From positions 15,568,907-15,632,906 of the forward strand of contig NC_068351.1 in NCBI RefSeq assembly GCF_014633365.1: a stretch of 64,000 bases of DNA, in the 5' to 3' direction. A model generated the notes under the pieces. It did no database searches. It saw only the letters and a list, made by a program, of their open reading frames with translations, and was not told the origin of the DNA. This document shows, piece after piece, positions 4,152-36,742 of the stretch. A program made the translations under genes and the position numbers. The DNA comes from Diospyros lotus. Lineage: Eukaryota; Streptophyta; Magnoliopsida; Ericales; Ebenaceae. The stretch's first letter is position 1; each line of letters opens with the position of its first letter.

Positions 4152-4174
4152 CAGGCCCCACGGTGGGCACTAAA
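4152..4174 (-). other. Primer binding site region of left gypsy element
   Basis: The minus strand reads TTTAGTGCCCACCGTGGGG directly inside the LTR end. This is the form seen at primer sites of plant Tat-type elements (a 'GGCGCC..CCGT..GGGG' pattern). It fixes the orientation of the element and the inner edge of the 5' LTR. Confidence 0.6.
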
Positions 4175-4760
4175 TGTTCCTTCCTAACCAAAAGAGGAAC
4201 GATCGGAGGCGGGGTGCGGGCTCTTGCGACGGATTTGTCCGGGAGGCTGCTAGCACCTACAAGCACTCCAACGGTTGAGTGAGTAAGAGAGTAAGATGGA
4301 ACGGTGTATCAGTAGGTCAGAGGTGAGAACATACCTTGGCTCTGAAAAGAGCTGGTTGATATATGAGGAGGAAATGTCCTCCTGCATGCATGAGACGTGT
4401 GCTTGCAGGTGATGTGACTGGCTATCCAACGCCAGTGGAGATTTTCAAGTGGTAGCATGGTGGCAACGAGACCCTCATTAATGTGGATGAGATCCGCCAT
4501 TAATGAGGATGAGATCTAAGACGGCTGCGCAGATATCTAGTGGGTTTCCAATGATGTCATGGCAGGCTAGCGTTGGGCCAAAGATGGATCCAGAACAGAG
4601 ATCAGGTTAGACCAAGATTGAGTCTAAGGAGAAAGCCGAAATTGGGCCTGGACAATCCAATTATTTTTACTTAAAAATAACAGTTGCATCTTGTCCTTCT
4701 AATTAATGATGATCTAACAAAATACCTCATGAGTAGACATATCAAACAGGTGGAACTGTC
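4175..4760 (-). repeat. 5' LTR of left gypsy element (outer end uncertain)
   Basis: The inner edge is set by TGTTCC on the plus strand next to the primer site. No second copy is in the window to define the outer edge. The minus strand contains a TATA-like CATATATC near 4355-4365. Coding potential is absent. Confidence 0.5.
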
Positions 4761-8437: not shown

Positions 8438-11212
8438 TGTAAGCACCCCCGTCCGAATATCCCAACCACCCGAACTACCCAAACGGGAGCACCTATGGAA
8501 GGAGAAAGAATGAGATAGAAGACAGAAACTACCCTGACATACATACATAATAATGAAAAGAGTAGAACCTAAGCTATACACATGCATGCACTACGGGTAC
8601 CCTGCTAGCACAGCAATCACATGATAACTAAATAATTATAAACTCTTGTGCCGAAATACATGAAACACGAGAAATGACCTGGCACAGTCAAAGATAATAG
8701 AGGGACTCCCTCTCAAACATTAAACTTGACAAGGACTGACAGGACTGCCTGTACACTAAACTGACTCTATCGCTAAAAGCTATCTCCCTTGCTCTTGACC
8801 TGCGCTACCACTACTTAAAATGATGGAAAGCAAAGTGAGTCGAGAGACTCAGCAAGCGTAAGGAAAGAAAGACAGAAGACTGAACATATCCAATAAACTC
8901 TCCCCAGAACACCAACCCCCAAGCACACACAAGCCATAAGACACCCAACATAGTACAAAAGCGTAAATAAAAACACGTATCGGTCCTTGGGGCCCACACA
9001 AGACACACGGCACCCAAGTCCCATATCAACCTGCCGTTGTCCTGAAAGGCAACATATATCTCCAACAAACCTGTACGCGCCATCCTAGGTCGGTGCTCCC
9101 GTCACTCGTGTGCTCGTGTCGGTCTTCCCGACACCCGAGCTGTAGAATAGTAGAGCCATAGGCTCCCTCGAAACGGTCCTCTCGTCCGAGACTGCTGAAC
9201 ATATAGTAACCATGCAAATGCACATAAAAATGCAATGGCGTAGTGAGCATCAACATGATACACTGGTGCTTATACATTCAGGCATCAGGCCCTGCTCCGC
9301 CCACATAGTAAACCACACGCAATTCATATGCCTGTGCTGGATGCAACCTAACCAAGCTAGAATGTCCGTGTCCAAGCATACTCAATAAATGAATATCCTA
9401 ACATGCATCTTGTACCCATGTGGATACCAAACCATGAATGGTAATATATCACATCGAATCATACAATAAACCACATAAATCGCATATTGGCAGAGCTAGT
9501 CAGCAGTGTTCGGCACCGGTCAATAGTTAGTGACTAGGAGTGTCCACCCGACGATCTACTTTAGGGCCGTACAATAGTCTACCCCAATGTCACCAAACAA
9601 CCGACCCATGCCCCACTGCTCGATAACTCTAACCGAATCATAAATAAACTCAAAAAAATCATAAATAAAACCTCTCATCTAGGAACCTAGTCTCCAAGCT
9701 AGGTTCCACATCATTCCGAAAGGAATGGGGGCGATACAAACTCCTGTAGGCTCATAACAAATAAAATTCTAGAAGTCCCAGATTTAATTTAAATTATACC
9801 ATATGGATAATAACACAATAAGTAATGCTAGGCACCGAATTGGAGAAAGAGAAGGGAAAAAATACAAGAAATCACGGAATCTCTCACGGGAATTAAAGAA
9901 CATGAGGAGAGGGTGAGGGGCTTGCCTTTACACAGTCGTTTCTTTTTTTTCTTGCACTCCCGCTATGAAGTAAAACGTTTAATAATGATTAATAAAACTG
10001 TGGCTTACATTAATTAAATCTAATCGTGTAACACGAATAATTTAGCCATATAAAATTCTTGAACATATAGCACTACTAATAATTTTTACCCACATAGGCA
10101 CATCACAAATAAAATCCCAAAGAGTCTCATATTTAATTTAAATTAAATCATGCCAATAACATCCTCAATTTATATAATTAATACGCGACACCAAAACGAG
10201 TTAAAGGAAGGCGAGGGGTTCACAAAATGGAAATAGATCATAAGGGTAGAAAGGAGCTTGCATTGTTTAAGCTGATTATAATGTTTTTACGCTTGAATGC
10301 CACCAAATTAATACACGCTGTAATTTAACATAAACTTCCAAAATTAATAAAATCGGGCCCAAAATAAAATTCCAACCGTAGAGAATGATTAATACATATT
10401 ACTCTACTTACTTTACTATTTAAACCGTGATTAAACCACGTTTAATCTTCAATTTTTTCTCAAATTTTCCTTTCCTGCGCGCTGCTTCATCTTCTTCAAT
10501 TTCCTTGATGTTTCTGCTTTGAAAATGGCCGAAATCGGCCTTAAAAACGAAGGAGAATTGAGGCTTCTCGTGCAAGAAATAGGTAGCTGAGAACGCGCCA
10601 CGTGGCGCACCTAGTTGCTGTTGCATCGCCCCCCACCTACCCAAAACGGTGTCGTTTTGGGCACCTTATGGATGATAAAAATCAGCCAATTGCTTCAGCG
10701 CCCCCCCCCCCGGATTGAACCTACGACCCCAGGTCCCTCCTCGCACACGCATGCCGCCTGAGCTGCTGCCTCTTTATATATCCATACGTGCACTATTATA
10801 TTTAACATGTAATTAGCCCATTCCCTGGAAATTGCCAAAGTGTCCGAACACTTCCAGAAATCTCATATACACCCCAAACTCTCATTTCCCTTTATTACAC
10901 TTATACCCCAAATTTTCAAAAAATCTATTGAATTAATTTATTTTCCTATTTTCATAAATACTCCCAAATAAGATTATTAATTGCCTTAATTTCTTTTTAA
11001 TACAACTAATTTTATATTTTCTTTAAACCCATCAATACAATAATTAATAATAATTAACCATTCCCAAATAATTTAATTAATTACCTTTAATTCCCTATTT
11101 CCACAAAACAACATAAATTATTATTTTTTTCTTAAATCTCTAAATACCCAATAATGACCTCAAACACCGATTTTAATAATTATTATTTATCTCCAAGTTT
11201 TGGGGTGTTATA
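8438..11212 (-). repeat. 3' LTR of old Tekay/Del-type gypsy element
   Basis: It starts TGTAAGCACCCCCG and ends GGGGTGTTATA, the inverted termini usual for plant Tekay-type chromoviruses. A second copy begins at 14889, and the two align for over 1 kb with many differences, so the insertion is old. The element lies on the minus strand because a purine tract adjoins this LTR and a tRNA-type primer site adjoins the other. No coding potential. Confidence 0.85.
10705..10775 (-). other. tRNA-like segment with A-box/B-box pattern inside LTR
   Basis: On the minus strand AGCAGCTCAGGCGG (A-box-like) is followed about 35 bases later by GGTTCAATCC, a perfect match to the B-box consensus GGTTCRANYCC. A run of Cs on the plus strand (10701-10711) abuts it. 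This is not a foldable complete tRNA gene by eye. It resembles the tRNA-related promoters of Pol III genes and SINEs. Confidence 0.4.
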
Positions 11213-11213
11213 G

Positions 11214-11226
11214 TTCTCCCCTCCTT
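11214..11226 (-). other. Polypurine tract of Tekay-type element
   Basis: The minus strand reads AAGGAGGGGAGAA immediately before the 3' LTR, preceded by 'TTCGAGGACGAAATTC'. That is the familiar end of the Tekay-type polyprotein and its plus-strand priming site. Confidence 0.7.
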
Positions 11227-14200
11227 AATAGAATTTCGTCCTCGAAATTCGCGTTCAGTCCCTGTCCTCAAGATACATTCACAACTCCCATGATATTACC
11301 CAACATCTCTTCTAGGATATTCCATATCATCATTTTTCAGTATTCCACCAGTCCAAGTCTACTACGTATCCTTTTTGACTTAATTGACTAGTACATCTCC
11401 CCAATCCATCACCTCAATTGGACCACGTTATGACCACTAATACCTTAACCAACTTAAGGAACATCATCAATCATATTACATAAAACAACAAGGTTCGCCT
11501 ATTACAATATCATAATCCAACCGTTCCCCAAAGCTATCTCGCAATCTCATCGCACTTTCGTTTAGGACTATCTCGACCACATATCAACCTAAAGACAACT
11601 CAAAATTCAGAAGTATTCAATCCCAATGATAAACAGATTCGTAGCACTAAGCTTAATGCAAAGGCAGCTAACTTCAAATACAACCGGTAACGCGACCGGA
11701 ACATGGAAACGATACTACATAATCAAGAATTCAACGGCAATATCCTTTAGTCTGACTTTTTCCCAACTGATTCTTAACCAGGTACACAACATTTCCTCGG
11801 CAGTACTTTCTCCCACAATTTGCCGAGTATACTCAAGATCCCATCAATAAATATGGGTAGTCATTTAATCAAGACTATCAAAGAATATATGTTCTCCACT
11901 CAATACATCTCGAGATCTAAAATGTCGTCAGATCTCCCCTTTAAATGAATCGACATACCCAATTGTGGGTTCCTACTATGACTTATTCGATGATCACCAA
12001 CCCTCAGTCTTGTCATGCTGCTGATCTTAAATCCAAATAGCTAAATGTCCATACCTCATCTAGATCGCTAAATACTAACCCCGACCTTCTCAAAGACTCT
12101 ATAAGTTAGCTGAAACACGATCTTTAGAATCGATATTATCAGCTCTATAGTCTGCTCGACTAAAAGCACCTCAGTGTATCAGTAACTGTTATAATCCCCA
12201 AGGCATCTCATAAGTCTTGCTTTTGGGGAGAAATAACTTAAAGATGTTAGTTAAACATTCTTCTGGTTGGCATAACCGGCCATCCCATATTTTCGTTGAT
12301 GTACCACTTAACCAGCACCCAGAGGAGTCTCATCCTCTTACTCGGTCAATAACCGACCCTAGGGCATGTGGTTCGCGATTAGTACCGAGCGTACTCATAG
12401 CAACCACTATCCTTAAAACAGAACCCAACAGTTACTTAAACATACAACTAACTTCGGTCTTGGTTATACACCCGGGTATCTACCACAACAACAATCCTAG
12501 AGGGGTTTTCTTATTTCTAATTCACTTTATCACGGATCCCAAAACGTCTACTATCACCTTTGCCTTACCCTATTTATTACAGAATCTCACAGTCTTAGTC
12601 CTTCGTTAGGCCAACCGCGGCGTTGCCTATACTCTGCTCCACCTGTGAGAACTAAACACCTATACCCTACCTAGGTAGTGATGCCAAATCTCCAAACAAC
12701 ATAATTGTTGTAAACTCCAAGTCCACAATCTCGTAATAGTCCTTCAGTGAATTCCCATCACAGATCTCTCTTGGGATAAGCTTGACCCCAAGCTTATCAT
12801 AAATACATTTGGTTCAGTGCTCCATTTGTTAAGCTCCATCTAAAACTTGAGAATTCGTGTTAGTGTTCCAATTTATCCATCTAGATTCGATTAAACTTAA
12901 GGTTAATGCCCTAAACCTCCAAGGAATGCAAACCCCATAGAACCTCAATTTGCCTTCACACCCCATCACATTATGTATCTCTCGTCCGAATATGTACAGA
13001 CAGTTTAACTGTCAACATCACATAAGCTACCGCATTACTCAACCTTCAGTTTTTCGTCTCAGTACGCCATGTACACATCTCGGTACCTACGTATCTGTCA
13101 TTTACCATCGGACTCCTATAGCACATTCCCACCATGTCGAATCTCTCCATGCCACTCCTGGCAAAATCCAATCATGGACCTCCAACTCACATTCTACCAT
13201 GACCTCATCTCCCATGAAATTGACGCAAGCATTTTGTAGGATGTCGGTAATGCCTGGAGAGACTAAGGAAACTCTAGACCTCTATCTCTGTCGTCAGTCT
13301 TGACCAATCCATAAATACTACAAAGGCGTCAGTCAGCCCGAATGGCATGGCCATGAACTTATAGCGATCAAACAAGTACGACAAGCAATCGTTAGAAAAC
13401 ACCTCGGAGTTACCTCGACAAATAATTTTCTCGGGAGAAATGACATCTTTGCTTGAAGGCTGCCCGGTTCAATTGTAGGGTCAATCTCTTACTAAGGCAA
13501 CCTCCCTGGTAAATCTCTAAGAAAGTCAAGAGTATCCCACACTCATTCATAATCAGGGAAGGAAATCAGCCATACATGACCTTATCATGAACAACGTGTG
13601 CCCTAAATGCAACTTTAAAAGTTCCCTTAATCACTTCCTTTAATCGATGTACGTGGTATCTCTAATCTGCATCACTAATAGACAATGGTTAGGGACACAA
13701 CAACTCCACCGCAAGTCAGGTGTCCGGTCTACTCAGTCTTAGTGAAAACAATCTGCAACCCAAATGTCCATCACAGGTCAACCCTGTGACTTCCTAGGTT
13801 CATACTATTCATCACATCAAGTCACTAGGATACTCTTTTCTAATAGCAATAACTACTTGATTCCTAAGGATCCCAAGGCTCATAACTTTATTAAATACAT
13901 CTCATTCCATAATACCTACAAACATTATACCTGATGTTTCTCACACAATTCCTATCCTTACAAAATTCATAATTCACACCACACATTTGCATTACAACCC
14001 CCTTACTAATCATACTAACTAGAACTCCCCTCATCACCCCTGGCAACTGAGGTAGCTTCATCTACCAGGTAAGCTAAGTCCTCATTACTAGCTACGCTGG
14101 AGCTGGGTCCAACAGGTCCCTCTGGTGGCTGTGACGGTTCCCTCACAGTGGCTTGGACTGACTAGGTGCCAGGTAGTGCTCCAATCCTAAGCATGTCCTG

Positions 14201-14888: not shown

Positions 14889-15893
14889 TGTAAGCACCCC
14901 CACCCGGATATCCCAACCACCCAGACTACCCAAACGGGAGCGCCTACGGAAGGAGAAAGAATGAGACAGAAGACAGAAACTACCCTGACATACATACACA
15001 AGAATGAAAACAACAGAAGCTAAGCTATACACATGCATGCACTACGGGTACTCTGCTAGCACAGCGGTCATATGATAAATAAATAAATACAGACTCTTGT
15101 ACCGAAATACATGAAACACGAGAAATGACCTGGCACAATCAAAGATAATAGAGGGACTCCCTCTCAAACATCAGACTTGACGAGGACTGACAGGACTGCC
15201 TGTACACCATACTGACTCTGCCGCTAAAAGCTATCTCTCTTGCCCTTGACCCGCGCTACCACTACCTAGAATGATGGAAAGCAAAGTAAGTCGAGAGACT
15301 TAGTAAGCATAAGGAAAGAAAGACAGAAAGTTGAACATATCCAATAAACTCTCCCCAGAACACTAACCCCCAAGCACAAACAAGCCATTAGACGCCCAAC
15401 ACAGTACAAAAGCATAAATAAAAGCACGTATAGGTCCTTGGGGCCCACACAAGACACACGGCACCCAAGTCCCATACCAACTTGCCACTGTCTTGAAAGG
15501 TAACATATATCTCCAACAAACCTGTGCGCGCCATCCCGGGTCGGTGCTCCCATCACCTGTGTGCTCGCGTCGATCCTCTTAACACTCGAGCTGTAGAATA
15601 ACCTAGCTATAGGCTCCCTCGGAGCGGTCCTCCCGTCCGAGACTGCTGAATATATAGTAACCATGCAAATGCACATAAAAATGCAATAGCGTAGTGAGCA
15701 TCAACATGATACACTGGAACCCATATATCCAGGCATCAAGCCCTGCTCCGCGCACATAGTAAACCACACGCGATGCATATGCCCGTGTTAGATGCAACAT
15801 AACCAAGCTAGAATGTCCATGTCCAAGCATACTCAATAAATGAATATCCCAACATGCATCCCATACCCATGTGCATACCAAACCATGAATGGT
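14889..15893 (-). repeat. 5' LTR of Tekay-type element, first part
   Basis: This matches 8438-9430 of the other LTR throughout. It stops in the middle of shared sequence at ...CCATGAATGGT, where the young LOG-carrying element is inserted. The match resumes at 27236. Confidence 0.88.
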
Positions 15894-17671
15894 TGACTGC
15901 TACGCTACCCTGCACATTTATTTATCAAAACTACAACCAAATTCATCAGACATCAATCCTTTTATTAAAGCAGGTGTAGGGCGATTATACTCACCAGTGT
16001 ACGAGTGTGCGTGTAGTACAATTTTAAATTTATATTTCGGTAAGTCCGAGTCGGTTCATAGGGAGATTATTTATGGTTGAAAGTAAAAATCATAAAATAT
16101 TTGAGTTTAGGAGGTGATTAAGATGATTTAAAGGTAAGAATTAAAACTAAACTAATACTGAATTTAAGTAGCTTGGGTCAAGACAATTTCAGTGCCAAAA
16201 CCAATTAATTCCCGATTTAATAAAAAAGATCAGTAATATTCATCTGAATTAAGTTTTGCAGCTCTGTCAGTAATTTTAAGTTCAAGATAATGATAATTCT
16301 TGTTTAAGCAATCTCCATACATGGCATGAAAATTCTAAGTTAAGTAATTACCATAAATTGAATTATATTCCAGACAGAAGTTATAGATATAGATTAATCA
16401 TTTGGGTTTGGGTATGAAAACATTTTCAGGTCTAGCAATCTCCATACGTGGCATGAAAATTCTAAGTTAGGCTTATACTTCAATCCAAACTTAAAGATAC
16501 ACTATACCCACGCTGCTCAAATTAAATCAGATTAATATTACATACTTGAAGCGTAACTTTCTTTGGGAATCATTGGAGTTAGACACTGTCTTTGCCTTAA
16601 TCCAAGATTGGTTTTAGCTACTTATCTTCATTTTTAAATAAATTGGCAGGAATTTAAATGACGAAAATTAAAAGACAGTATTTAAAAGACTATTTTTTAA
16701 CCGACCATATAGGCGGTATATAATGAAAAGACAAGAATTGAAAGACTATTTTTTAACCGACCATATAGGCGGTATATAATGAAAAGACAATAACTGAAAG
16801 ACAATTTTTTAACCGACCATATAGGCGGTATATAATGAAAAGACAATATTTAAAGACAATATTCAACCGACCATATAGGCGGTATATAATAAAAAGACAA
16901 TCTGAATAACATAATACAACTATATGGAAACAAAAGTTGAAGATTTAAGAGAGAAATTCTAAGAACGAAACTATATTGAAACTAAAGTGAAAATTTGAGA
17001 GAGAAATCCTAAGAACGAAACTATACTTTCATTATAGAAAAATTGAATTCTTACAAATGAACCCCAAGTGCTCTATTTATAGGCTTTAGGATGCAATGGA
17101 GACCATTTAATTATATAATTTAATAATACAAAATATCTAAAGAAAAACAAAATAACTAATTTAAAAATACAAAGATAAATAAAATATCTAATAATGATGT
17201 AAGCGATGATGTCATTCCAACCCATGATGTAAGCGATGATGTCATTCCAACCCATGATGTAAGCGATGATGTCATCCCAATCCATGATGTAAGCGATGAT
17301 GTCATTCCAACCCATGATGTAAGCGATGATGTCATCAATTTGTGAGACTTGGGCTTTTCATATTTTTGGGCTTGGGCCTTGCTTGTGTTGGGCTTGGGCT
17401 TGAACCTTCCTTGTGTTGGGCTTGGGCTTGAGCCTTCCTTGTGTTGGGCTTGGGCTTGGGCCTTACTTGTGTTGGGCTTAGGCCTGGGCTTTCCATATTT
17501 TTATATTATATTTATTTTTTTATATTTTATATATTTTATATATATTTTTATATTAATATTTTAAACATGCACAAAATCACAAAATGCATAATAATATTCA
17601 ATTTAAACTATTTTAAAATCAAAATAAGGGTGAAATTATAACAAATTTTTTACAAAATTGATCACTAATCA
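15894..17671 (-). repeat. 3' LTR of LOG-carrying element
   Basis: This 1778-bp LTR differs from the other copy at about 8 of the first 360 bases, nearly all transitions. It contains four units of a roughly 62-bp repeat with the core ACCGACCATATAGGCGGTAT (16685-16890) and five 30-bp as-1-like units (17194-17335). A minisatellite of 'TTGGGCTTGGGCC' type follows at 17345-17500. Confidence 0.93.
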
Positions 17672-17684
17672 CACCCCCCAACTT
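17672..17684 (-). other. Polypurine tract of LOG-carrying element
   Basis: The minus strand reads AAGTTGGGGGGTG immediately upstream of the 3' LTR start TGATTAGTG. This is a typical plus-strand priming site and confirms the minus orientation. Confidence 0.75.
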
Positions 17685-18100
17685 AAACATTGCTAGTCCC
17701 ATAGCAATTAAACTTTACACTGGCCAGATTTATTCACAATAATCACATGAATATAAAAATTTCAAATTCAAAACGGAAATACATAGAACAGAACAAGCCA
17801 TCTGTCATACAGTCGAATATTCTAAATTAGATTTCGGTCAAAGGTTATACAATCTTAGGAATGGCAATTAGGATGATCATTATTCTACCTTATTCCCTCG
17901 AAGTTTCGACTTCAAACCTTACTATGGATTTTCCCTCAAATAAAAAAAATGATTCCTCGGGTGTACACACAAGGGAGCCACCGTTTTAAGAGTAAATGTA
18001 AAACAAGTTCAAACTCGGTGTCGTCCCAAATACAAAGAACGTATTTTCATGAAAGAATAGGGAATTTAACATAGCTTCATGACTAGAATAATGCCATAGA
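17685..18100 (-). other. Non-coding interior of LOG-carrying element, 3' side
   Basis: These 416 bases lie between the purine tract and the nested solo LTR and continue at 20774. No open frame or recognised motif is present. Confidence 0.5.
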
Positions 18101-20768
18101 TGTAACACCCCGTCTCGCCAGGCGTGTCACTATAAGGGTATTCTCGAGATTTCTTTTTTTTTTTTCTTTTTAGTTCAACACATGCAGTGTATCAAGAACT
18201 ATCTTCACATGCAGATACAAACCCCGAGAACCCCAGCCTTGCCCGTTTAACTATCAAGATCAATAATCTTAAACTAAACGAGACATAATACAATGCAGCG
18301 GATATATTAACATCAAATATTGTCGTTCTTACATGGTATTCCCTTAACAACATACGTAATACAGATCAGATGACAACTTTGCTACTATACAACTGTTCAT
18401 TTACAACCTGAAATACATTCTGAAGCCTCCAAATGTTACAACGACTATCAAACTAAGCACCATTGGCCCCTAACCGGCCACATCCTAGCCCTCGCAGCAG
18501 TCCCTGGCTGGAACATTAAACGTTCCAGGGGCATAGCCCAGGTTAGATGATAAAACATCTAAGTGACGGTATGAAACAGTTTATGCAATGCATGAGAGAC
18601 ACACGAGCATGGCATACTCAGACAAGTGACAACATGCAAGACACGTCTAACTTGAGAAGTTTCCCTGACATATTTAATCCCTCGAATGCCCCACTGTGAC
18701 ACCCGTTCACCTGGTCTAACGTTAATCCCTCGAGTGCACCGTCGTGACACTCGTTCACCTGGTTTAACATTATTCCCTCGAGTGCCCCAGTGTGACACCC
18801 GTTCACTTGGATTATCATTGTCCCACCCTCAAGTAGACCTCATCCCGACCCACACGGACACAGCACCGACACGAAATATCAATACCCCGATGATATGAAA
18901 ATCACAAGCCATGCACCGACTCTTTTATAAGTAAAAACAGTTGATGCAATATACCACATGTTCAATATGCAAATGATGCCACAGATACATAAGTAAAATG
19001 TTTTTGCAGAACAATCCAAGTTCCGGAGGGTAAAACCGCTCACTAGAACTGGTCCCAATTGCGTGTAACCTAAGTTCGGGAGGGTAACACCGCCCACCAG
19101 AACTCACTACACACCTTCCAACATATTTTCAAGATAAGGTAAAGATAGAATCAGACCACTCACCTCGAACATATTCAGAACACCTCGAATCTTGTGCCCA
19201 ACCTCAATTTTCGTGCAACTCCTCAAGTCTTTTAACCAAACCACCTCCTTACACGTCCTCACGCACTGCCCAGGTGCTCTGCGCGTGTGATGCTTCGCGT
19301 ATGCTTAAAAAGTCCTCTATCCACTAAACCCGAAGCACTCTTGTTTAACACGAACTTCTCATAATTTCGAATGAGAGAATTCTTAGCCATGAACCCCTAT
19401 TTATAGTTTTTGGAAACTTAGCCACCAAGAAACATATATTCTGCAATCATTTCAAATCTTCCAAAATCTTTTACAATCATTTCAAATCTTCTAAAGATCT
19501 TCTGCAATCATTGTAAATCTTCTAAGATTTTCTATAATCATTTCAAATCTTCTAATATCTTTTGCAATCATTTCAAAATCTTCTTATATCTTTTGCAATC
19601 ATTGTAAATCTTCAAAGATATTATATAATCATTACCAAATCTTCTAAGAGATTCTGCAATCATTCTAAATCTTCTAATATTTTTTGCAATCATTGTAAAT
19701 CTTCAAAAATATTATATAATCATTACCAAATCTTCTAAGATATTTTGCAATCATTCTAAATCTTCTAAGATTTTATATAATCATTGTTATCCAAATCAAA
19801 TCTTATTCAAATCATATCCAACAAAATCTTATCCAATTAAATCTTATCCAAATCTTATCTTATCCAATCAAATCTTATCCAAATCTTATCTTATCCAATC
19901 AAATCTTATCCTTAAAGTCATCATGAGCCTTCATCTTATCTCTAACGTCATCATAAGGCTTCATCTTATCTCTAATATCATCATGAAACTTCATCTTTAT
20001 CACTAAAGTCATTTATGAGGTTTTTTTCCTGAATTTTCCAAATGCCCCTAGTAAAAAGGTTTCAATAATTACACTTTGACCCGAACTTTTGGGTAATTGC
20101 ACTTTAACCCTTTTCAACATGGTCCTTGGACTAATTTTTAATTGCATTTTAGTCCCTAAAAAAAGACTAATTACGCTAATGCCCCTAATTTTTAGATAAA
20201 TTACACTTTTACCCCAACCTAAAAAATTATGATTTTGCCCCTGGCTCAAAAACTGAACTTCTCTTTAAAGACCTTTATAACTCTTTGAAATATCCTAAAA
20301 CATTCTCTTTAAAATTTCGAAAAAATATCGTTTCGACCTCCCTCTATCAATTTCAAAAAACTGCACTTAGGCCCGAATCTTCGTTTTGGCTAAAAACCCT
20401 TTTGTTTCTTCCAAAAACTACTGAAGGGTTACTTTACATACCAAATATGAACTTCCTCGGGGTTCCATTGACTTCCCAATTGCCCCTACATTAATTCGGT
20501 ATTTCAGCCTAAATCACAACTGCCTTTTTAGCTGTACCGAGAACCGTTCCTGATCCAATTTCTTTCGGGGCCATAAATCATATCTTGTATTACTTGTCGA
20601 TACTATACCATTTTCCTTGACTATCTAGGGTCCAGTGTACTCCCTCTGACTAATTCGGTCGTCCAAAGTTGCGTCAGTGTACCTTATATAGTCTCATTTT
20701 TTCACAAATTCCATTTATGCCCTTCATCAAATATTATTTATACCCTTAATAATTTCTCGGGTATTATA
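18101..20768 (+). repeat. Solo LTR of a gypsy family (copy 1), nested
   Basis: It starts TGTAACACCCCG and ends CGGGTATTATA, the near-inverted ends of chromovirus LTRs, and is flanked by perfect ATAGA duplications (18096-18100 and 20769-20773). No internal domain or second LTR is present, so this is a recombination-derived solo LTR. It contains three roughly 50-bp units around 'CCCTCGAGTGCC' (18676-18815). A long degenerate array of 'CAATCATT..AAATCTTCTAA' units lies at 19440-19800. The same family recurs at 33424-40398 (inverted) and 34324-36025. Confidence 0.88.
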
Positions 20769-20773
20769 ATAGA

Positions 20774-22006
20774 TAAATAACTTCTGAATTTAAACAGAAT
20801 TCTTTACTCTGAACTCGAATCCTAAGATCACATGATTTATAGTATCAAGAGGGACCAGACCGGGTTGTAATGGGGCTATGAGGTTAATACGGGTTGTCAA
20901 AGAAAAGGGTAAAGTGTGCAAATGGTGTGTCGGGATTTTTTTCTCTCTTTTTTTTTTTTTTGACACTAATATCAAATTGGACGTATTGTTTTCTTCAGCA
21001 TTTATTTTGAAACACTCGTGCTGAAAAGCTAAGAGAACTTCCATTTTTTCTTTTTTTCTTTTTCTTTTTTTTTTTTTGTTTCTTTTTAATATGAAAGTAC
21101 CGAGATAGACTGATTCCTAAAAACACACCAGGTTGGATAAACTTCATATGGTTCTAGGTTAGACGAGGGTAATGAAAGGAATTATGCTAAGAACAGTTCA
21201 AATGGGCTAGCAAGGGGGTTAATGTAAAGAAAGAAAAAGGTTAATAGGCCCAAATTGAAAGAAATTGATCCCCTATCATGCTTCTATAAAACGATGTTAC
21301 TCAGTCAACTAATTCAGAGTTTGAAATCAGCCAAATTCATCAGCCATCATACTAGACATTCAAAGCAAATTGATGTTTTGAAGCTATTGAAAATATGAGA
21401 TCAACAATAAAGCGCATTTAGAATAAGTGTTATTTCACTCAAAATTAATGATCATTAGGCTCAAACACTCACTCGGGTAATAGTCTCCACTTCTGTTAAG
21501 GGATCATGCAGTGTGCTAATTACCATTGCCTTTGACTTTATGATCGATAAACCAATTTCTAATTATTAAACTTTCGATGCATGCAAATCACTTATTCTAA
21601 TCCCATACATGTATGTTTTCAAATAAGAAATTAATGCATTCATGATTCATACTGCAAATTCAACTATCTATCAGTTTATAACTCCAAAGCTTTAGGGATA
21701 GCATTATTTAAAGCACACACAATTTTTTTTAATTTTTAATAGGAGTAGATAAAAGTAAATAATTCACATAAAACTACAAGCATGCAGTTATAAATTCACA
21801 ATTAAACATGGACTAGATAATTCATAAATATACCTTACTCCCCCAACTTGAATTGCAGTAATAAAATAGGGTTGTTAGGAATACCTGTAACTCCACGAGT
21901 CTGTAAATTTATTGTGAACTGCTAAATCTTCAACAAACAAGTGAGAATACTCTACATATATTTTTTTTTATTTTTTTTTATTTTTTTTTCACACTGAAAT
22001 AAGAAA
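20774..22006 (-). other. Non-coding interior of LOG-carrying element
   Basis: This is AT-rich sequence with poly-T/pyrimidine tracts at 20940-20962 and 21046-21080 and a purine-tract-like site at 21840-21855. No domain is recognisable in any frame. It is probably the 3' non-coding part of the element. Confidence 0.5.
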
Positions 22007-22215
22007 AATTCATGCAAGTCATATAATAAAGAAATGCGTCTCAAGAGTACAAAAAGTACTCCTTACTCAGCCATCTTATTATAGACTTGCCTAACAACAT
22101 TCCATAATTTTTTAAAACAAAACATAAAATAAATTCATGCAAGTCAAAATAAACAGATGCGTCTCAAGAGTACAGAAAAGTACTCCTTACTCAGCCATAT
22201 TATCATAGACTTGCT
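22007..22215 (-). repeat. Two tandem copies related to the 3' end of the Cys-rich ORF
   Basis: Two segments at about 22007-22090 and 22130-22215 share 'GCGTCTCAAGAGTAC..AAAGTACTCCTTACTCAGCCAT' with few differences, about 120 bases apart. A third related copy is the C-terminal coding part of the ORF at 23215-23270. The LOG ORF lies between the coding copy and the two downstream copies, which suggests duplication of element sequence when LOG was acquired. That last point is inference. Confidence 0.6.
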
Positions 22216-22219
22216 CTCC

Positions 22220-22879
22220 TTAGAGGGATAAATCTAAATTAATCAGGCCCCTTTTGCGCTTGCTTCTAATTACCTTAGACCAGTCTATCCGAGGCTCGTA
22301 AGGATCATGCTGTGGAACATAAGTGTGTAATTTCTCTAGTAGCTTCTCAATGGTGGATGCGGAAATGAGAATATTTCTTGCAGAAAGAGAAATAAACTTT
22401 TGTTCCACAGCCTGATCAAGAAAAGAGAGCAACCCATCAAAAAAATGGTTAATATTTAAAAGTCCAATGGGTTTGGTATGGAGATTGCTCTTGGCCCAGG
22501 AGATTATACAAAAGATTTCTTCAAGTGTACCAAAACCTCCTGGCAAAGCAATGAAGGCGTCTGACTGATAAATCTTACAAGCCATGCGCTCAGACATAGA
22601 AGTCGTTCTTATAAGTTGACCTCGTGTGTACCCGGAAATCTGTGGATCAACCAAAGGGATTGGCATAATACCTACCACATATGATTGCCCAAGATGTGCA
22701 GCCTGTGAAATACATCCATTCAATCCACGACTTCCCCCTCCATAGACCAAATTAATTTTTCTCTCTCCCAATTTTATGCCAAGTTCGCTTGCTGCAAGTG
22801 TGTAACAAATATCGCTCCCAGGTTGAGAGCCACATAGTACACATATGGTATTGATTCGACGAACTGGCTGGCCTTCCAT
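22220..22879 (-). CDS. LOG: LOG-family cytokinin riboside 5'-monophosphate phosphoribohydrolase, intronless
   Basis: The 219-residue protein starts at ATG 22879 and is uninterrupted. Enzymes of this family release active cytokinin bases from their nucleotides, usually in the cytosol. The nucleotide-binding start ICVLCGS is at residues 12-18 and GGGSRGLNG at 47-55. MSERM at 95-99 keeps the conserved Arg, and PGGFGTLEE at 113-121 is the family signature. The C-terminal 'KPIGLLNI' and 'YVPQHDP' blocks are also present, so length and order fit a full plant LOG. Oddities are Arg for the usual Val in GGGS(V)GL(M)G and Met for Lys after the conserved Arg. Plant LOG genes normally have several introns and this one has none, so it looks like a copied mRNA. 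A strong acceptor-like site (CTACTTTCAG, exon from 22903) lies just upstream. Activity is unproven. Confidence 0.9.
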   Translation of the reverse strand: MEGQPVRRINTICVLCGSQPGSDICYTLAASELGIKLGERKINLVYGGGSRGLNGCISQAAHLGQSYVVGIMPIPLVDPQISGYTRGQLIRTTSMSERMACKIYQSDAFIALPGGFGTLEEIFCIISWAKSNLHTKPIGLLNINHFFDGLLSFLDQAVEQKFISLSARNILISASTIEKLLEKLHTYVPQHDPYEPRIDWSKVIRSKRKRGLINLDLSL

Positions 22880-23196
22880 TTATGTTAGTTCTTTATGTAT
22901 GCCCTGAAAGTAGAACTGGTTAAAGAGGTTTGGCAATCAAAAGTAACTACATAGAAATTCAACAATAAATAAACATAAACAAAAATCATGCGTATATACA
23001 AGTAGTTGTGATTGTGACTCACATCTTCCTCTGGTTTTACGTCCAGAAACGGCTTATACACCTTCTATGAAGCGGGGATAGGCTTCTCATCCAATTTTCT
23101 TATAGATTGGCAAACAGGGTCAATTATAGTCAGATTCCCAAGACTATAGCGTTGGTGGTCACTTCTAAATTGGGTCCATAAAACAAGAATTTCTTG

Positions 23197-23598
23197 CTAC
23201 ACTATTCCACACGGATACGTCTCAAGAGTCAATCGGATATCATCCAAAGACTCCTTACTCAGCCCATCCTTTATGAAACAAATTTTATCATCTCGATTTA
23301 TGGAAGTAAACCCCACAGATTTGCATCGTGTGTTACAAGTCCATCGAGCACATTTGTGACAACCATTTAATCTTTTCGCTCTTCTTTTTTTCGAAAAACT
23401 ACTCTTTCCCAATCCTGGAAAATGCTTAAAACTAGGTGAGGTTTCGCCAAGAAATCGAACTTTTGCTTCAATTAACCAGCGAATATCCTCAGGGATATTT
23501 TTATACATCAACATCCGAAGTCTTTCACACCTAGTGGCATAAATCTTTTTTAAATCATTTTGTGGGAGAGATGGATAGTACTTGTGAATTTTCAAGAG
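23197..23598 (-). CDS. Unrecognised Cys-rich ORF of the LOG-carrying element
   Basis: Open for about 134 residues after a likely splice acceptor (ATCTTCAG, exon from 23598). It has no ATG of its own near the start, so the true start may lie in an upstream exon. The protein is basic in the middle (KKRRAKR) and has a compact motif CHKCARWTCNTRC, spaced C-x2-C-x4-C-x3-C, that could bind zinc. After this come FTSINRDDKICFI and an amphipathic end. I do not recognise the family. It lies about 320 bases upstream of the LOG start on the same strand, and its 3' coding end is related to the repeats downstream of LOG. It may be an element-specific nucleic-acid-binding protein. Confidence 0.5.
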   Translation of the reverse strand, partial: LLKIHKYYPSLPQNDLKKIYATRCERLRMLMYKNIPEDIRWLIEAKVRFLGETSPSFKHFPGLGKSSFSKKRRAKRLNGCHKCARWTCNTRCKSVGFTSINRDDKICFIKDGLSKESLDDIRLTLETYPCGIV

Positions 23599-23960
23599 CT
23601 GAAGATCTATTTTTTTAAAACAGAACTATAGTAAAAGAGAAATAAAACAAAATTATAACTCTTACAAAAGGAACGAGAGTACCTGATCGGAGAACAACAC
23701 AAAGGAGAGAAGACTGAGCTCAAAGAAGTGTGGCTTGCCTGATGCAGATACAGGTCTCTTATAGGGCTGTGGAAGTCACCATTCTCTTATAGGCGTGCCA
23801 CAAGTGCAGGGTCACGTCTGGCGTCTCCTTTTTTCAACGTTCGGCATCTCCTTTTACAACTTTCGGCGTCTCCTTTTTCAACTTTCGGCGTTTATTTTTC
23901 AACGCTTGATGTTTCTTTTTCTTTATAGGGTATTGTGTCCTTTTTCTTTATAGGGCAGTG
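23599..23960 (-). promoter_or_regulatory. Candidate internal promoter, 5' exon and 84-bp intron
   Basis: Reading on the minus strand, two CCTATAAAG TATA-like sites lie at about 23915-23950. They are followed by a tandem array (23818-23905) of roughly 22-base units containing GGCGTCTCC on the plus strand. Next comes a CT-rich exon-like stretch ending CCGATCAG, then GTACTCTC, with TCTTCAG 84 bases later (intron 23599-23682, T-rich). That is a plausible short plant intron leading into the Cys-rich ORF. The layout resembles a separate transcription unit inside the element; this is inference. Confidence 0.4.
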
Positions 23961-24165
23961 TGATTGCACTACCCCAGAAAAGTGGTTGCCGTCAGCGATA
24001 TGTCTGTCTCCCTCTTTTCTCTATCTTTTTTTTTTTTGTGTGTATATATATATATATATTTATATTTATTTATTACAAAAACAAATTTTATTTTATTATA
24101 TATTTTTAAATATTTTTTAAGAGTTTTTTTCTTTTCTTCCAGTTAAGAATCAAATAAGTGGTTGC

Positions 24166-25134
24166 TCACCTATTCGTATAATAACTCCCATTCATTACAC
24201 CACTTTTAAAATTATTTTCAAAATTATGTAAATTGATTTTTCTCATAAATGCACATACATATTTTGAAAATATGTCATCCGGAGGTGTTGGCTTTATTAC
24301 ATCAGAGTACGACACAACAATTCGCACAAACACTTCACATATGTCTGGTTTAATTTGATTCCCAATAATATAGACTAGCCTAAAAGACATAAATTTAGGC
24401 TCAAGTTTGGCTAGGCCCATGGTATCTTCACATTTGGGCTCTTGGGTTTTATCCTTTTCTTTCTCCCATGCTTCTTCTTTTCTCACATCATTTTGGTCCA
24501 ATTTTTCTTCTATGATTGCTCGTACCATCCTAGGGTCATCAGATTTCTCAATTGGTTCATCATTCATAAGGAGGGGTGTAAATTGGAACGGCTCTTGACC
24601 TATGGGTGAATTGAATGACGATTCCTCCCCAAGACATTGACCTATGAAATTTTGACTGGGTTGGTTTGGAAACTCGCCAGGTTCACTCACGCTCAAGGTC
24701 TGTGTAAACTCGGTCAATTGTTCTAAAATGTCACCTATGGCCTTAGTGGTTTGTTCTTGAAGTTCAACCACTTGTGCGTTAAAACTCATTTAACCTTGCA
24801 TAAACTCCTGAAGGGTGTCCTCTAAAAATTTTTCATCCTGAGGTTGATAAGCATTAGATCTAACCCCTTGTTCTAACTCAAATTGGTGAGGTGGTGGAGG
24901 AAAAGGCTCATGAGATTGGAACACAGAGTCATTGTTCCAAGGATAATTCCAATGATCATAGGAATTGGGGTAATCAGTGTAAAGATCTGGGTTGTAGCCC
25001 GACATATAAGAATTCTCCCTCTGACTCTGGTCAAAAGAAAACCTCCCCTCATTAGGATCGGGATGGCCAAATGCATTAGAAGTCACAGACATGCTAAAAT
25101 ATTGAGACATAGAGAATATGGAATGACAATTCAA
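24166..25134 (-). pseudogene. gag-like ORF of LOG-carrying element, one internal stop
   Basis: One frame runs about 322 codons with a single TAA at 24790-24792. The first part is rich in Asn, Tyr, Ser and Pro (NYPWNNDS, PFPPPPHQFELEQ) and ends FLEDTLQEFMQ. The second part continues as a likely coiled coil (VVELQEQTTKAIGDILEQL) followed by an acidic Lys/Glu-rich stretch and a hydrophobic C-terminus. The position just after the primer site and the coiled-coil character suit a gag or gag-remnant, but there is no zinc knuckle and no clear family match. Whether the stop is tolerated or is decay is unknown. Confidence 0.55.
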
Positions 25135-25428
25135 CGGCAGATAATTATGCTAATGAATCAATTAATGTTTCAATAATCATACCTGACCGTAATCTCTTGC
25201 ACTGTTTAATAACTAAAAGTTATCTAAATTTTTTTTAAATTTAATTTTTTTAATTATTTTTAATTTATATTTTTTTATTATTTTTTATTTTATATTTTTT
25301 TATTATTTTATTATTTTTTTAGTTTTTTTTCCAAATATATATTTTATATATATATTTTCTTGAAAATAATTTTTTTAATTATTTTTTTTAATATTTTTTT
25401 AAACAACAAAATTCAACCAAATTTAATC

Positions 25429-25446
25429 TCCCTGGCAACGGCGCCA
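25429..25446 (-). other. Primer binding site of LOG-carrying element
   Basis: The minus strand reads TGGCGCCGTTGCCAGGGA five bases inside the 5' LTR end. This is close to the tRNA-Asp-type site (TGGCGCCGTTGCCGGGGA) used by several plant LTR elements. Confidence 0.82.
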
Positions 25447-26630
25447 AAAACTGACTGCTACGCTACCCTGCACATTTATTTATCAAAACTATAACCAAAT
25501 TTATCAGACATCAATCCTTTTATTAAAGCAGGTGTAGGGCGATTATACTCGCCAGTGTACGAGTGTGCGTGTAGTACAATTTTAAATTTATATTTCGATA
25601 AGTCCGAGTCGGTTCACAAGGAGATTATTTATGGTTGAAAGTAAAAATCATAAAATATTTGAGTTTATGAGGTGATTAAGATGATTTAAAGGTAAGAATT
25701 AAAACTAAACTAATACTGAATTTAAGTAGCTTGGGTCAAGACAATTTCAGTGCCAAAACCAATTAATTCCCGATTTAATAAAAAAGATCAGTAATATTCA
25801 TTTGAATTAAGTTTTGCAGCTCTGTCAGTAATTTTAAGTTCAAGATAATGATAATTCTTGTTTAAGCAATCTCCATACATGGCATGAAAATTCTAAGTTA
25901 AGTAATTACCATAAATTGAATTATATTCCAGACAGAAGTTATAGATATAGATTAATCATTTGGGTTTGGGTATGAAAACATTTCCAGGTCTAGCAATCTT
26001 CATACGTGGCATGAAAATTCTAAGTTAGGCTTATACTTCAATCCAAACTTAAAGATACACTATACCCACGCTGCTCAAATTAAATCAGATTAATATTACA
26101 TACTTGAAGCGTAACTTTCTTTGGGAATCATTAGTGTTAGACACTGTCTTTGCCTTAACCCAAGATTGGTTTTAGCTACTTATCTTCATTTTTAAATAAA
26201 TTGGCAGGAATTTAAATGACGAAAATTAAAAGACAGTATTTAAAAGACTATTTTTTAACCGACCATATAGGCGGTATATAATGAAAAGACAAGAATTGAA
26301 AGACTATTTTTTAACCGACCATATAGGCGGTATATAATGAAAAGACAATAATTGAAAGACTATTTTTTAACCGACCATATAGGCGGTATATAATGAAAAG
26401 ACAATATTTAAAGACAATATTCAACCGACCATATAGGCGGTATATAATAAAAAGACAATCTGATTAACATAATACAACTATATGGAAACAAAAGTTGAAG
26501 ATTTAAGAGAGAAATTCTAAGAACGAAACTATATTGAAACTAAAGTGAAAATTTGAGAGAGAAATCCTAAGAACGAAACTATACTTTCATTATAGAAAAA
26601 TTGAATTCTTACAAATGAACCCCAAGTGCT

Positions 26631-26640
26631 CTATTTATAG
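26631..26640 (-). promoter_or_regulatory. TATA box of LOG-carrying element
   Basis: The minus strand reads CTATAAATAG, a canonical plant TATA box, about 110 bases downstream of the as-1-like array. The same site occurs at 17073-17082 in the other LTR. Transcription would run towards lower coordinates through the gag-like ORF to LOG. Confidence 0.7.
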
Positions 26641-26751
26641 GCTTTAGGATGCAATGGAGACCATTTAATTATATAATTTAATAATACAAAATATCTAAAG
26701 AAAAATAAAATAACTAATTTAAAAATACAAAGATAAATAAAATATCTAATA

Positions 26752-26894
26752 CATGATGTAAGCGATGATGTCATTCCAACCCATGATGTAAGCGATGATG
26801 TCATTCCAACCCATGATGTAAGCGATGATGTCATCCCAATCCATGATGTAAGCGATGATGTCATTTCAACCCATGATGTAAGCGATGATGTCAT
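26752..26894 (-). promoter_or_regulatory. Five tandem as-1-like enhancer units
   Basis: Five near-identical 30-bp units each contain TGATGTAAGCGATGATGTCA. The spacing of the two TGATG halves (seven bases between them) equals that of the as-1/ocs element bound by TGA-type bZIP factors, TGACG-N7-TGACG, with C changed to T in each half. A relative of the array at 29640-29695 retains TGACATCA forms. Position upstream of the TATA box fits an enhancer. The other LTR has the same array at 17194-17335. Binding is inferred. Confidence 0.55.
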
Positions 26895-27235
26895 CAATTT
26901 GTGAGACTTGGGCTTTTCATATTTTTGGGCTTGGGCCTTGCTTGTGTTCGGCTTGGGCTTGAACCTTCCTTGTGTTAGGCTTGGGCTTGGGCCTTCCTTG
27001 TGTTGCGCTTGGGCTTGGGCCTTACTTGTGTTGGGCTTGGGCCTGGGCTTTCTATATTTTTATATTATATTTATTTTTTTATATTTTATATATTTTATAT
27101 ATATTTTTATATTAATATTTTAAACATGCACAAAATCACAAAATGCATAATAATATTCAATTTAAACTATTTTAAGATCAAAATAAGGGTGAAATTATAA
27201 CAAAATTTTTACAAAATTGATCACTAATCAATGGT

Positions 27236-27781: not shown

Positions 27782-28204
27782 CTATTCTATCAAATCTATT
27801 TTCTTACCCATACCACCCTCTTGTATGAACTCTTTTTCCATGAAGATGACATGCCTAGCGACCACAACTCTTGGGTCAGCTGGAAAAAAGACATAATACC
27901 CTAAACTATCTTTAGAATACCCCACAAAACGACCCTTCTCAAATATAGGATCCAAATTTCTTATTCTCAACCTTTTTACACGAATAGGACAACCCCAAAT
28001 CCCAATATGCTTAATACTCGAAAGTTTACCAACCCATATCTCATATGGTGTGGTTGATACAACTTTAGTTAGAGCACGATTTAACAAGTAAATCACAGAA
28101 AGAATGGCATAACCCCATAGTGAAATTGACAAATTCATGTAGCTTAGCAAAAACCGAACCATGTCCAATAGAGTCCAATTTCTATGTTCAACCACACTAT
28201 TCAA
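27782..28204 (-). pseudogene. Ty1/copia integrase fragment
   Basis: The 140-residue minus-strand frame begins NSVVEHRNWTLLDMVR, the copia integrase block around the catalytic Glu (usually NGVAERRNRTLL). It continues through YLLNRALTKVV, TPYEIWVGKLSS, LRIWGCP-like (HIGIWGCPI) and GRFVGYSKDSLGYYVF to the linker before RT. Nothing else of this element is attached on either side, so it is an isolated fragment. It is on the opposite strand to the copia element starting at 29955 and so belongs to a different insertion. Confidence 0.85.
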
Positions 28205-34323: not shown

Positions 34324-36025
34324 TGTAACACCCCGCTTTTTCTCTTACCGAGCGTGTCACTATGCTGAGGCCCAAAATTTACATAATTTATTTTTTTCTT
34401 TCTTTCTCGGTCATAACTTAAACTTTAAGTACCGAATTCCAAACAAAACCCCAGCAAAACATTAAAGATGCGGAAGCAATAATCAAAACCTGATATGGTA
34501 CATAATCAATTTACTTTATTTAACATGAGAATCTGTACCATAGTTAACATCATATTCTCAATATTGAAATACATAAATACATGGAGATTCCATAATGTTC
34601 TAACAAGGTTAATCATTAATAAAGTATCAGTTAAAACTTATCCGAGTCAGCTTGCTGAATCCATCGGCCACGCCATCACGTGCGGTCTCATCTCAACCTG
34701 CTCCTTGCCTAAGCTGTAAGTCTAAACTGGAAAGTTGAATGTTCCAGGGGTATAACCCATTAGAAGATAAAATTCTAGTGAGGGTCCAAAAACATATATA
34801 TACGAATGCATGATATAATAACATGAACAACATTTGCCCTTAATATAACTTCCCAGGCCTACCAGCCCGGCACAGAATTTTAGGCAAATCCCGAACCTCT
34901 ACAGGATAAGCCTAACGTTATTCCATCATTGCCTTAGGGAATTACGGCTACACTCTGAGGGTGGCATCCCATTCCCATGCACAAATATCAATGTGATAAT
35001 CATGTCATGCAAATATCACAATTTTTCATGCAATATGACAAAATGAATCATATCTTTTATAATTATCGTGCATGTACAAGCAATCATATCTTTCATAAAT
35101 ATCATGCATAATTATATCGTATAGGATAGAACAACTCACATTTGCCCAAAGATCAAGACACCTCGAAAAGTGCGCATCACCTCGATATGCGTGCCCAACC
35201 TCGATTCTCATGCCAATTCTCAAAAGTTGCACCAATTACATCATCTCAATCATGAAAATGATATTTAATCACTAAATATCCTCAATATTTCATGTATTTC
35301 ATATTTTTCTTCATTTTTCCTTCTAAAAATCCCAATAAATATCTCGAGACCATTTCCTCAAATCTATCTTCACAACAATTCATTATAGACTATAAACTTC
35401 CAAGAAAAAATACTAGACTTACCCGGGTGTTGCGTTTTCACACAAAACGAGACTTTTTGGTGCAAAAACTAAGACATCGGGAATCTCAAATTTCAATCTT
35501 TTTGCACAAACTTCCATAAAGCATTTTTCTTGATTTTCCCAAGATTTTTCCAGAATTTTTGGCCTATGCACGTGCCCCCACGCACTGGTGTGTGGCTCTA
35601 CGCGTATAGGCAACGCGTGAAGGCCACACACCGACCTTCTTCTCCGGCGCCGGCGATGCTGGATTTCGATGCCATTCTCTTTCTCTCATCAAGTCGATCA
35701 GGATGGCCAAGTTTGAGCCTCAAAGGACCACCAGAAGACATCCAATTGGCCGGCCAATCTCTCAGCCAAACCGGCCACCTCCAAACTTCGGCGAGCTTTG
35801 AATCACTATGAAACCTTGATCAAAATGGCCCAAATTTTCCAGAAACGATCCTCAGGCCATGGGCAACAAAAGCCCTCTATTTTGGAGGCTCAATTCGTTC
35901 GTTAAAGCCCTCGATTTGAAGATCCATTTCTCCCTATTTTCGGCCTTCATGAAACCCTATTTATAGGCATCTTCGATGCTTCAAATGCCTGAGATCGGCC
36001 AACCCATGAGCCTTGGAGCATCTAC
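34324..36025 (+). repeat. LTR copy 3 of the same gypsy family, right end missing
   Basis: It starts TGTAACACCCCGC and shares with copy 1 the CGTGTCACTAT block and the 'GTTCCAGGGGTATAACCC' block (34742-34760). It lies head-to-head inside copy 2. The expected GGGTGTTACA terminus is not found before the CACTA-like element begins at 36026. No coding frame is credible. Confidence 0.65.
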
Positions 36026-36394
36026 CACTACAAAAAAACTGGCATTTAGCAGCAGTTTTGAAAACCGCCACTAAATCAGTCGTCGCGGAGCACTTAATGG
36101 CGATTTTGACCAACCGCTGGAATAACCGCCGTAAATCATATTTTTTGCGGCGGTTTTAAAATCGCCGCAAAATTAGTGATTTAGTGGCAATTTATAAAAT
36201 ATATAGCGGCGGTTTTTCAACCGTTGTGAAAATTATAAAAAAAATTAAAATTTTTAATTTTAGCAGCGGTTTTTAAAACCGCCGCTAAAATTAAAACAAA
36301 ATTAAAAATTTTAATTTCTCCCACCCGCCCGCACCCCCACCTGCTTGGACCCACCCGCGCTAACTCGCTTGGACCAGCCTGTGCCCGCACAGCC

Positions 36395-36480
36395 AAGTGG
36401 CACCTTCCCCAGTTTCGAACCCGCGACCTCCACTGTGCACGTGCATGCGCATGACCGTCTGATCTGCCAAGCCCCCTTGT
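36395..36480 (-). other. tRNA-like segment inside CACTA-like element
   Basis: The minus strand reads TTGGCAGATCAGACGG (A-box-like), then GCGGGTTCGAAACTGGGG, containing the B-box core GGTTCGAA, about 35 bases on. The layout is like 10705-10775 and 54665-54750. It is not a complete tRNA. Confidence 0.4.
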
Positions 36481-36742
36481 TATATAACTGCATATATAAA
36501 TTATATACCAAAACAACCACTACTTTCCAGAATTATATTTTATATTTTTTAATATAAATTAAAAAATATTAATTAATTTATTATTTTTTAAAAGAGTAAA
36601 GGAATAAATTAAAAATAAATTAATTGAATTAAATTAACTAAATTAATTGATTAAAAATAAAAAAAATTATATATTTTTTAAAATTATTAAAATTTTGTTA
36701 AATTTATTTTTATTTTAATTTTTTAAATTAAATTTTTAATTA

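What the first reader, a model, noticed from the sequence alone, without database searches (positions are those of the whole stretch)
15894..27230. A young LTR retrotransposon has captured an intact, intronless LOG cytokinin-activation gene
The element is defined to the base by near-identical LTRs, a primer site, a purine tract and a perfect ATGGT duplication. Inside, on the element's coding strand, lies a full-length 219-codon LOG ORF with the PGGFGTLEE signature and no introns, although plant LOG genes are normally intron-rich. That points to capture of an mRNA during reverse transcription. The element lacks its own polymerase, so every transposition would spread a hormone-activating gene under LTR control. 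The ORF is still open, which may mean selection or simply youth.
Basis: partly seen in the sequence, partly recalled or inferred. Interest (0 to 1): 0.88.

Follow-up and report, generated by a model that had tools for sequence, protein, structure and literature searches.

The report
Retrotransposon carrying cytokinin and virus-like genes
A jumping gene in a plant genome (probably date-plum persimmon) carries a cytokinin-activating-type enzyme gene next to a gene resembling a plant-virus silencing-suppressor protein; both recur across many copies and show signs of selection, so they look like established element genes and not a recent accidental pick-up.

Summary
In detail: an LTR element lies at 15894-27230 (LTRs 98.5% identical, ATGGT duplication, tRNA-Asp-type primer site, no polymerase domain found) with an intact, intronless 219-codon LOG ORF on its coding strand. 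The "recent capture" reading does not hold. LOG is in 9 of 9 other copies first examined and in 40 of 40 scored genome hits (this copy included). A second subfamily in the same genome gives 150 more scored hits. Between subfamilies LOG dN/dS is 0.31, so the gene has been under selection; only this insertion is young. The protein falls in a clade with Populus, Reevesia and Rehmannia proteins, apart from ordinary LOGs, and its members mostly end in a basic patch plus LxLxL (EAR-like). It is broken here, intact in 24 of 33 distinct copies, and more constrained (dN/dS 0.19). LOG-type domains in Ty3/gypsy elements are already in print (PMC9289625 and the 2011 report it cites). I found no report of the virus-like partner, the pairing or the tail. 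Best reading: a non-autonomous, probably Athila-lineage family with a maintained two-gene accessory cassette; its function is inferred.

The parts
15889..15893 (.). target site duplication ATGGT (left)
   Evidence: read
15894..17671 (-). 3' LTR (element reads on the - strand), 1778 bp, with internal 56-bp tandem repeats
17672..17684 (-). polypurine tract AAGTTGGGGGGTG
   Evidence: last printed line
18101..20768 (.). nested insertion, not part of the original element (TG...TA ends, probably a solo LTR or other LTR-type insertion) with ATAGA duplication at 18096-18100 and 20769-20773
   Evidence: the three other copies read lack it; junctions; subfamily B copy lacks it
22220..22879 (-). LOG-type ORF, 219 aa, intact
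22223..22237 (-). C-terminal LDLSL (LxLxL, EAR-like) after a basic patch SKRKR
   Evidence: sequence; pattern survey
23065..23610 (-). NABP/CRP-like gene, homologous to a 181-aa protein; in this copy the start codon position is not ATG and the frame stops at codon 138 (open part listed as ORF 23197-23595)
24166..25149 (-). gag-like remnant, two adjoining open stretches (24166-24789 and 24790-25149) that resemble by eye the 316-aa ORF of subfamily B copy L052
   Evidence: no Pfam match at or above cut-off
25428..25446 (-). primer binding site TGGCGCCGTTGCCAGGGAG, tRNA-Asp type
   Evidence: subfamily B has TGGCGCCGTTGCCGGGGA; the tRNA match is recalled
25452..27230 (-). 5' LTR, 1779 bp
27231..27235 (.). 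target site duplication ATGGT (right)
   Evidence: read

Best explanation
This is one young copy of a high-copy, polymerase-lacking LTR retrotransposon family, probably of the Athila lineage, that carries two accessory genes side by side as a cassette: a carlavirus-type cysteine-rich nucleic-acid-binding protein (NABP) and a LOG-type protein with a basic, LxLxL-ending tail. Shown: the anatomy, the recurrence of both genes across copies and across two subfamilies, and purifying selection on both between subfamilies. Inferred: the genes are expressed from the LTR; gag, reverse transcriptase and integrase come in trans from an autonomous relative; NABP dampens host silencing or regulates transcription, as its viral relatives do; LOG either releases active cytokinin and favours dividing cells, where new copies can enter the germ line, or acts in the nucleus through its EAR-like tail.
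For: LOG is in 9 of 9 other copies first examined, as is NABP, and in 40 of 40 scored hits covering 659-660 of 660 bases at 98% or more (894 candidates; one hit is this copy). A second subfamily gives 150 scored LOG hits (1058 candidates), 148 of 150 without a stop in the matched stretch, none within 3 kb of the 40 hits. 43 of those 150 have an NABP hit within 3 kb although both lists are capped. Of 33 distinct copies of this subfamily, 29 keep an intact LOG frame and 24 an intact NABP frame. Between subfamilies: LOG dS 0.238, dN 0.073, ratio 0.31 (312 pairs); NABP dS 0.327, dN 0.063, ratio 0.19 (38 pairs, one B copy); Fisher p 1.9e-6 for LOG, this copy against L057. NABP passes the curated cut-offs of PF05515 and PF01623. 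Viral CRPs as silencing suppressors, and one as a transcription factor causing hyperplasia: PMC12172455, passages.
Against: Within the subfamily, LOG singleton variants are near neutral (57 non-synonymous including 2 stops, 20 synonymous; about 0.85 per site), and shared ones are few (11 and 6). Copies were taken from the top of score-ranked lists, which favours intact ones. This copy's own NABP is broken. No RNA or enzyme data. A scan of viral contigs with the NABP alignment found no relative, and its predicted structure is unusable (mean pLDDT 54.4). Athila lineage rests on a primer site and my reading of gag; the gag-like ORFs reach no Pfam cut-off.
Confidence: 0.62

Rival explanations
1. 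Passenger: LOG and NABP are chance transduplicated cargo, carried along neutrally and still open because the copies are young.
For: LTRs differ by only 1.5%; within-subfamily LOG singletons are near neutral; plant elements often pick up gene pieces (recalled).
Against: Between subfamilies dN is about a third (LOG) and a fifth (NABP) of dS; Fisher p 1.9e-6; relatives of both proteins stay full length in other plant families.
Confidence: 0.1
2. Repeated capture: the LxLxL LOG clade is a host gene family of eudicots from which different elements captured LOG independently, so element and host copies are intermixed.
For: Some proteins of the clade are annotated as plant genes, e.g. Populus and Diospyros LOGL10, Primulina LOG3-like; I could check genomic context only in this genome.
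Against: The best D. lotus annotated gene (P0121) differs by six residues by eye from an element copy; a published screen found the LOG-type domain in LTR-element consensuses of Citrus and Populus (PMC9289625, section 12); one NABP and one LOG protein of another species come from contigs of the same length, 8723.
Confidence: 0.2
3. NABP is not kin to the viral proteins: a basic stretch followed by four cysteines arose independently, perhaps from a nucleocapsid-like part of gag.
For: The match covers only about 80 residues of the Pfam model with modest scores (31-34 bits); no viral relative in the viral-contig scan; 0 of 14 control genomes match PF05515, so the model gives no measure of chance kinship in other plants.
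Against: Two separate curated viral families match above cut-off in each of four proteins scanned; the four cysteines and much of the flanking basic block are invariant or nearly so in 12 aligned proteins; the gag-like ORF lies separately upstream.
Confidence: 0.2

Closest known systems
LOG/YgdH-domain extra ORFs in plant Ty3/gypsy elements (Steinbauerova et al. 2011; PMC9289625)
   Same: A LOG-type gene as an extra ORF inside a Ty3/gypsy element. PMC9289625 section 12 (read) names Citrus sinensis, C. clementina and Populus trichocarpa. I recall the 2011 abstract (not seen) as two Athila-like elements with LOGL4 similarity.
   Different: Here the elements lack pol, exist in two subfamilies with at least 190 scored copies, show purifying selection on LOG, and pair LOG with a virus-like NABP gene. 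None of these points is in the passages I read.
Athila lineage (OTA clade) of Ty3/gypsy
   Same: tRNA-Asp-type primer site, 5-bp duplication, 3'-side extra ORFs, gag-like stretch (partly recalled; passages of PMC6317226).
   Different: No reverse transcriptase to place it; gag-like ORFs do not reach a Pfam cut-off.
Plant LONELY GUY enzymes (At2g37210, PDB 2a33)
   Same: Fold family PF03641, PGGxGTxxE kept, the arginine of the MHQRK stretch kept.
   Different: Separate clade; the lysine after that arginine is replaced; basic LxLxL tail added.
Carlavirus cysteine-rich / nucleic-acid-binding proteins (PF01623, PF05515)
   Same: Basic block followed by four cysteines; above curated cut-off in both Pfam families.
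   Different: Encoded inside an LTR element; 181-182 aa with an alpha-helical extra part on both sides (low-confidence model).
Orchid Gypsy elements with an AlkB-type m6A demethylase (PMC9289625)
   Same: A maintained accessory gene of presumed anti-surveillance use in Ty3/gypsy elements.
   Different: Different gene; there the enzyme activity was shown in vitro, here nothing was tested at the bench.

Membership tests
LTR retrotransposon | paired LTRs, target site duplication, PBS, PPT | tested here: met
LTR retrotransposon (autonomous) | gag-pol with reverse transcriptase and integrase | tested here: not met
   no such domain among the ORFs scanned; three other copies read have no longer internal region apart from this copy's nested insertion
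Athila lineage | primer site complementary to tRNA-Asp | tested here: inconclusive
   TGGCGCCGTTGCC shared by both subfamilies; the tRNA sequence is recalled, one mismatch in this subfamily
Athila lineage | placement by reverse transcriptase phylogeny | not testable with these tools
   the element has no reverse transcriptase
LOG (cytokinin riboside 5'-monophosphate phosphoribohydrolase) | PF03641 domain and PGGxGTxxE motif | tested here: met
LOG | release of free cytokinin from the ribotide | not testable with these tools
   needs an enzyme assay
Carlavirus-type NABP/CRP | match above curated cut-off to PF05515 and PF01623 | tested here: met
   150 of 150 scored genome hits above the PF05515 cut-off, 0 of 14 control genomes
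Carlavirus-type NABP/CRP | close relative in a virus genome | tested here: not met
   Viral-contig scan: 229 stretches matched a pattern, none confirmed; the coverage of plant RNA viruses in that collection is unknown to me
EAR-motif repressor | LxLxL motif | tested here: met
   91 of 120 LOG hits; 49 of 67 tree rows, all on one side of a 98/96 branch
EAR-motif repressor | binding of TOPLESS-type corepressors | not testable with these tools
   none

The most novel reading that the evidence does not exclude
An old lineage of plant LTR elements carries a two-gene host-manipulation cassette, much as viruses do: an RNA-virus-type silencing suppressor to escape host RNA silencing, and a LOG relative, made nuclear and TOPLESS-binding by a new tail or still making cytokinin, that keeps the host cell in a dividing, transmissible state. 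The cassette has been under selection across eudicots, and the suppressor gene moved between RNA viruses and retrotransposons.
Probability: 0.3. Interest if true: 0.88.

Novelty: new variant of a known kind. Interest (0 to 1): 0.66.

Why it matters
If true, retrotransposons carry hormone and anti-silencing genes under selection, not just by accident. That makes testable whether a transposable element manipulates host development for its own spread. It also warns that many plant gene models named LOG or LOGL10 may be transposon genes: the annotated D. lotus LOGL10 protein is nearly identical to element copies here. And it points to gene exchange between plant RNA viruses and retrotransposons, in a direction still unknown.

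Tried and rejected
Recent single capture: rejected. Nested LOG retrocopy with its own duplication: not seen; in the copies examined LOG lies in the same place between the same flanks. The extra 2.7 kb as element content: rejected, it is a nested insertion. NABP structure for a fold search: model too poor (mean pLDDT 54.4), so no fold search was made. NABP relatives in viral contigs: none confirmed. Gag-like ORF for lineage: 3 relatives only, one a D. lotus uncharacterized protein; no Pfam match above cut-off. Contig-length coincidences as linkage evidence: NABP and LOG hits share lengths 8723, 2128 and 1389; I use only 8723, because among short contigs a match by chance is likely (my estimate, not computed). 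Papers: ten searches. Seen: PMC9289625 outline, abstract, section 12 and passages; passages only of PMC7264820, PMC6317226, PMC11728184, PMC3136472, PMC12172455. Steinbauerova 2011 and the EAR-motif literature are recalled. One search listed 8 of 18 papers; none was opened.
Full report
Element. The two LTRs (15894-17671, 25452-27230) agree at 1752 of 1779 aligned positions and are flanked by ATGGT. The coding strand is minus. The primer site TGGCGCCGTTGCCAGGGAG and the tract AAGTTGGGGGGTG sit where they should. With recalled plant rates of 0.7-1.3e-8 per site per year, 1.5% divergence means roughly 0.6-1.1 million years. Other copies match this one in two blocks, element positions 1-6462 and 9130-11337 (L049, and in part L050 and L051). 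The stretch between them, window 18101-20768, is therefore a nested insertion with an ATAGA duplication. A subfamily B copy lacks it too. No polymerase domain was found in the ORFs scanned.

Host. The genome has 630 Mb in 43 contigs. The best protein relatives are from Diospyros lotus: LOGL10 P0121, on a contig of 38,824,857 bases against C12 at 38,810,242, and P0241 at 99% identity over 72% of the query, on a contig of 45,053,450 against C4 at 45,045,435. I infer D. lotus or a very near relative.

LOG in other copies. LOG and NABP are in 9 of 9 other loci first cut out (L010-L018; LOG 97.1-98.5% identical). The DNA search scored 40 of 894 candidates. All 40, this copy included, cover 659-660 of 660 bases at 98% or more. 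A search with an ordinary LOG (Nyssa, P0233) scored 150 of 1058 candidates, at 50-52% identity, 148 of 150 without a stop in the matched stretch. None of the 150 lies within 3 kb of the 40. Eight of the 150 were read, and all eight are 219-aa LxLxL-type LOGs like P0121. I call this subfamily B. Its copy L052 also holds a 181-aa NABP and a 316-aa gag-like ORF, and it has the primer site TGGCGCCGTTGCCGGGGA. So at least 190 scored LOG places exist. These lists are ranked by score and so favour intact copies.

Second gene. The ORF at 23197-23595 matches PF05515 (Viral_NABP, 2.6e-7) and PF01623 (Carla_C4, 2.4e-4), both above cut-off. Three database relatives also match both above cut-off. The protein search gave 234 relatives; the 120 listed are 56-91% identical, and those with species names are from Orobanche, Striga, Populus, Acer and Xanthoceras. 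Four cysteines after a basic block are invariant in 12 aligned. In this genome 150 of 795 candidates were scored, all above the PF05515 cut-off, and 0 of 14 control genomes match. 43 of the 150 LOG places have one of these NABP hits within 3 kb; both lists are capped, so this is a lower bound. In this copy NABP is broken: no ATG at the start position, and a stop at codon 138. Among 33 copies with distinct sequence, this one included, NABP is intact in 24 and LOG in 29. Seven rows were dropped before that count as duplicates: four the same place fetched twice, three different places with the same sequence. One NABP row whose start was not aligned counts as not intact.

Selection. Within this subfamily, LOG singletons are 57 non-synonymous (2 stops) to 20 synonymous at 506 to 151 sites, near neutral; shared variants are 11 to 6. 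NABP: 29 (4 stops) to 17, and 7 to 6, at 313 to 83 sites. Between subfamilies LOG has dS 0.238, dN 0.073, ratio 0.31 (39 A rows, some of them duplicates and one gapped row left out, against 8 B copies). NABP has dS 0.327, dN 0.063, ratio 0.19 (38 A rows, two gapped rows left out, against one B copy). Fisher's test for LOG, this copy against L057, gives p 1.9e-6. This is the pattern of a gene selected while elements are active, then drifting in each dead copy.

LOG lineage and tail. Of 120 listed LOG relatives, 91 have LxLxL within the last 22 residues. In a tree of 67 rows (length 205-235, near-duplicates thinned), all 49 LxLxL rows fall with 9 others on one side of a 98/96 branch. The other side holds eight ordinary LOGs and one Xanthoceras protein (midpoint root, so this is a split and not a proven clade). 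The 58-row side includes Diospyros, Populus, Reevesia, Diplodiscus, Pterospermum, Rehmannia and Primulina proteins. PGGxGTxxE is kept with few exceptions, and the arginine of the MHQRK stretch is nearly invariant. LxLxL as a TOPLESS-recruiting EAR motif is recalled knowledge; here it is a pattern match only.

Known or new. PMC9289625 (section 12 read) reports the YgdH/LOG-type domain in LTR-element consensuses of Citrus and, without its filter, Populus, 'in line with' Steinbauerova 2011 (not seen). That section names no viral NABP. My ten searches listed no paper reporting a carlavirus-type NABP in an LTR element, but I opened only six papers and the library misses most subscription journals. 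Passages of PMC12172455 state that carlavirus CRPs commonly suppress silencing and that the CVB CRP also acts as a transcription factor inducing hyperplasia. Passages of PMC3136472 describe only a betaflexivirus replicase-like sequence in cucumber.

Mechanism. Most likely the LTR drives an RNA carrying NABP and LOG, packaging and reverse transcription are supplied in trans, NABP weakens host silencing, and LOG acts on cell division or, through its tail, in the nucleus. Only anatomy, recurrence and selection are shown; the rest is inference.

Noticed in passing
window 18101-20768: Nested insertion with ATAGA duplication, TG...TA ends and a 30-bp tandem array at about 19434-19828; 484 bases of it resemble window 39782-40259 at 74% in the opposite orientation.
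   Followed up: partly
window 27782-28204 (-): 140-aa ORF that by eye looks like a Ty1/copia integrase fragment; no family scan made.
   Followed up: no
window 16610-16910 and 26168-26468: 56-bp tandem repeats inside both LTRs.
   Followed up: no
window 36001-40000: Very A+T-rich stretch, 22-23% G+C against 27-49% in the other 2-kb blocks.
   Followed up: no
P0121 and P0241 (public Diospyros lotus proteins): Public gene models, one named LOGL10, that are nearly identical to proteins of these elements.
   Followed up: partly
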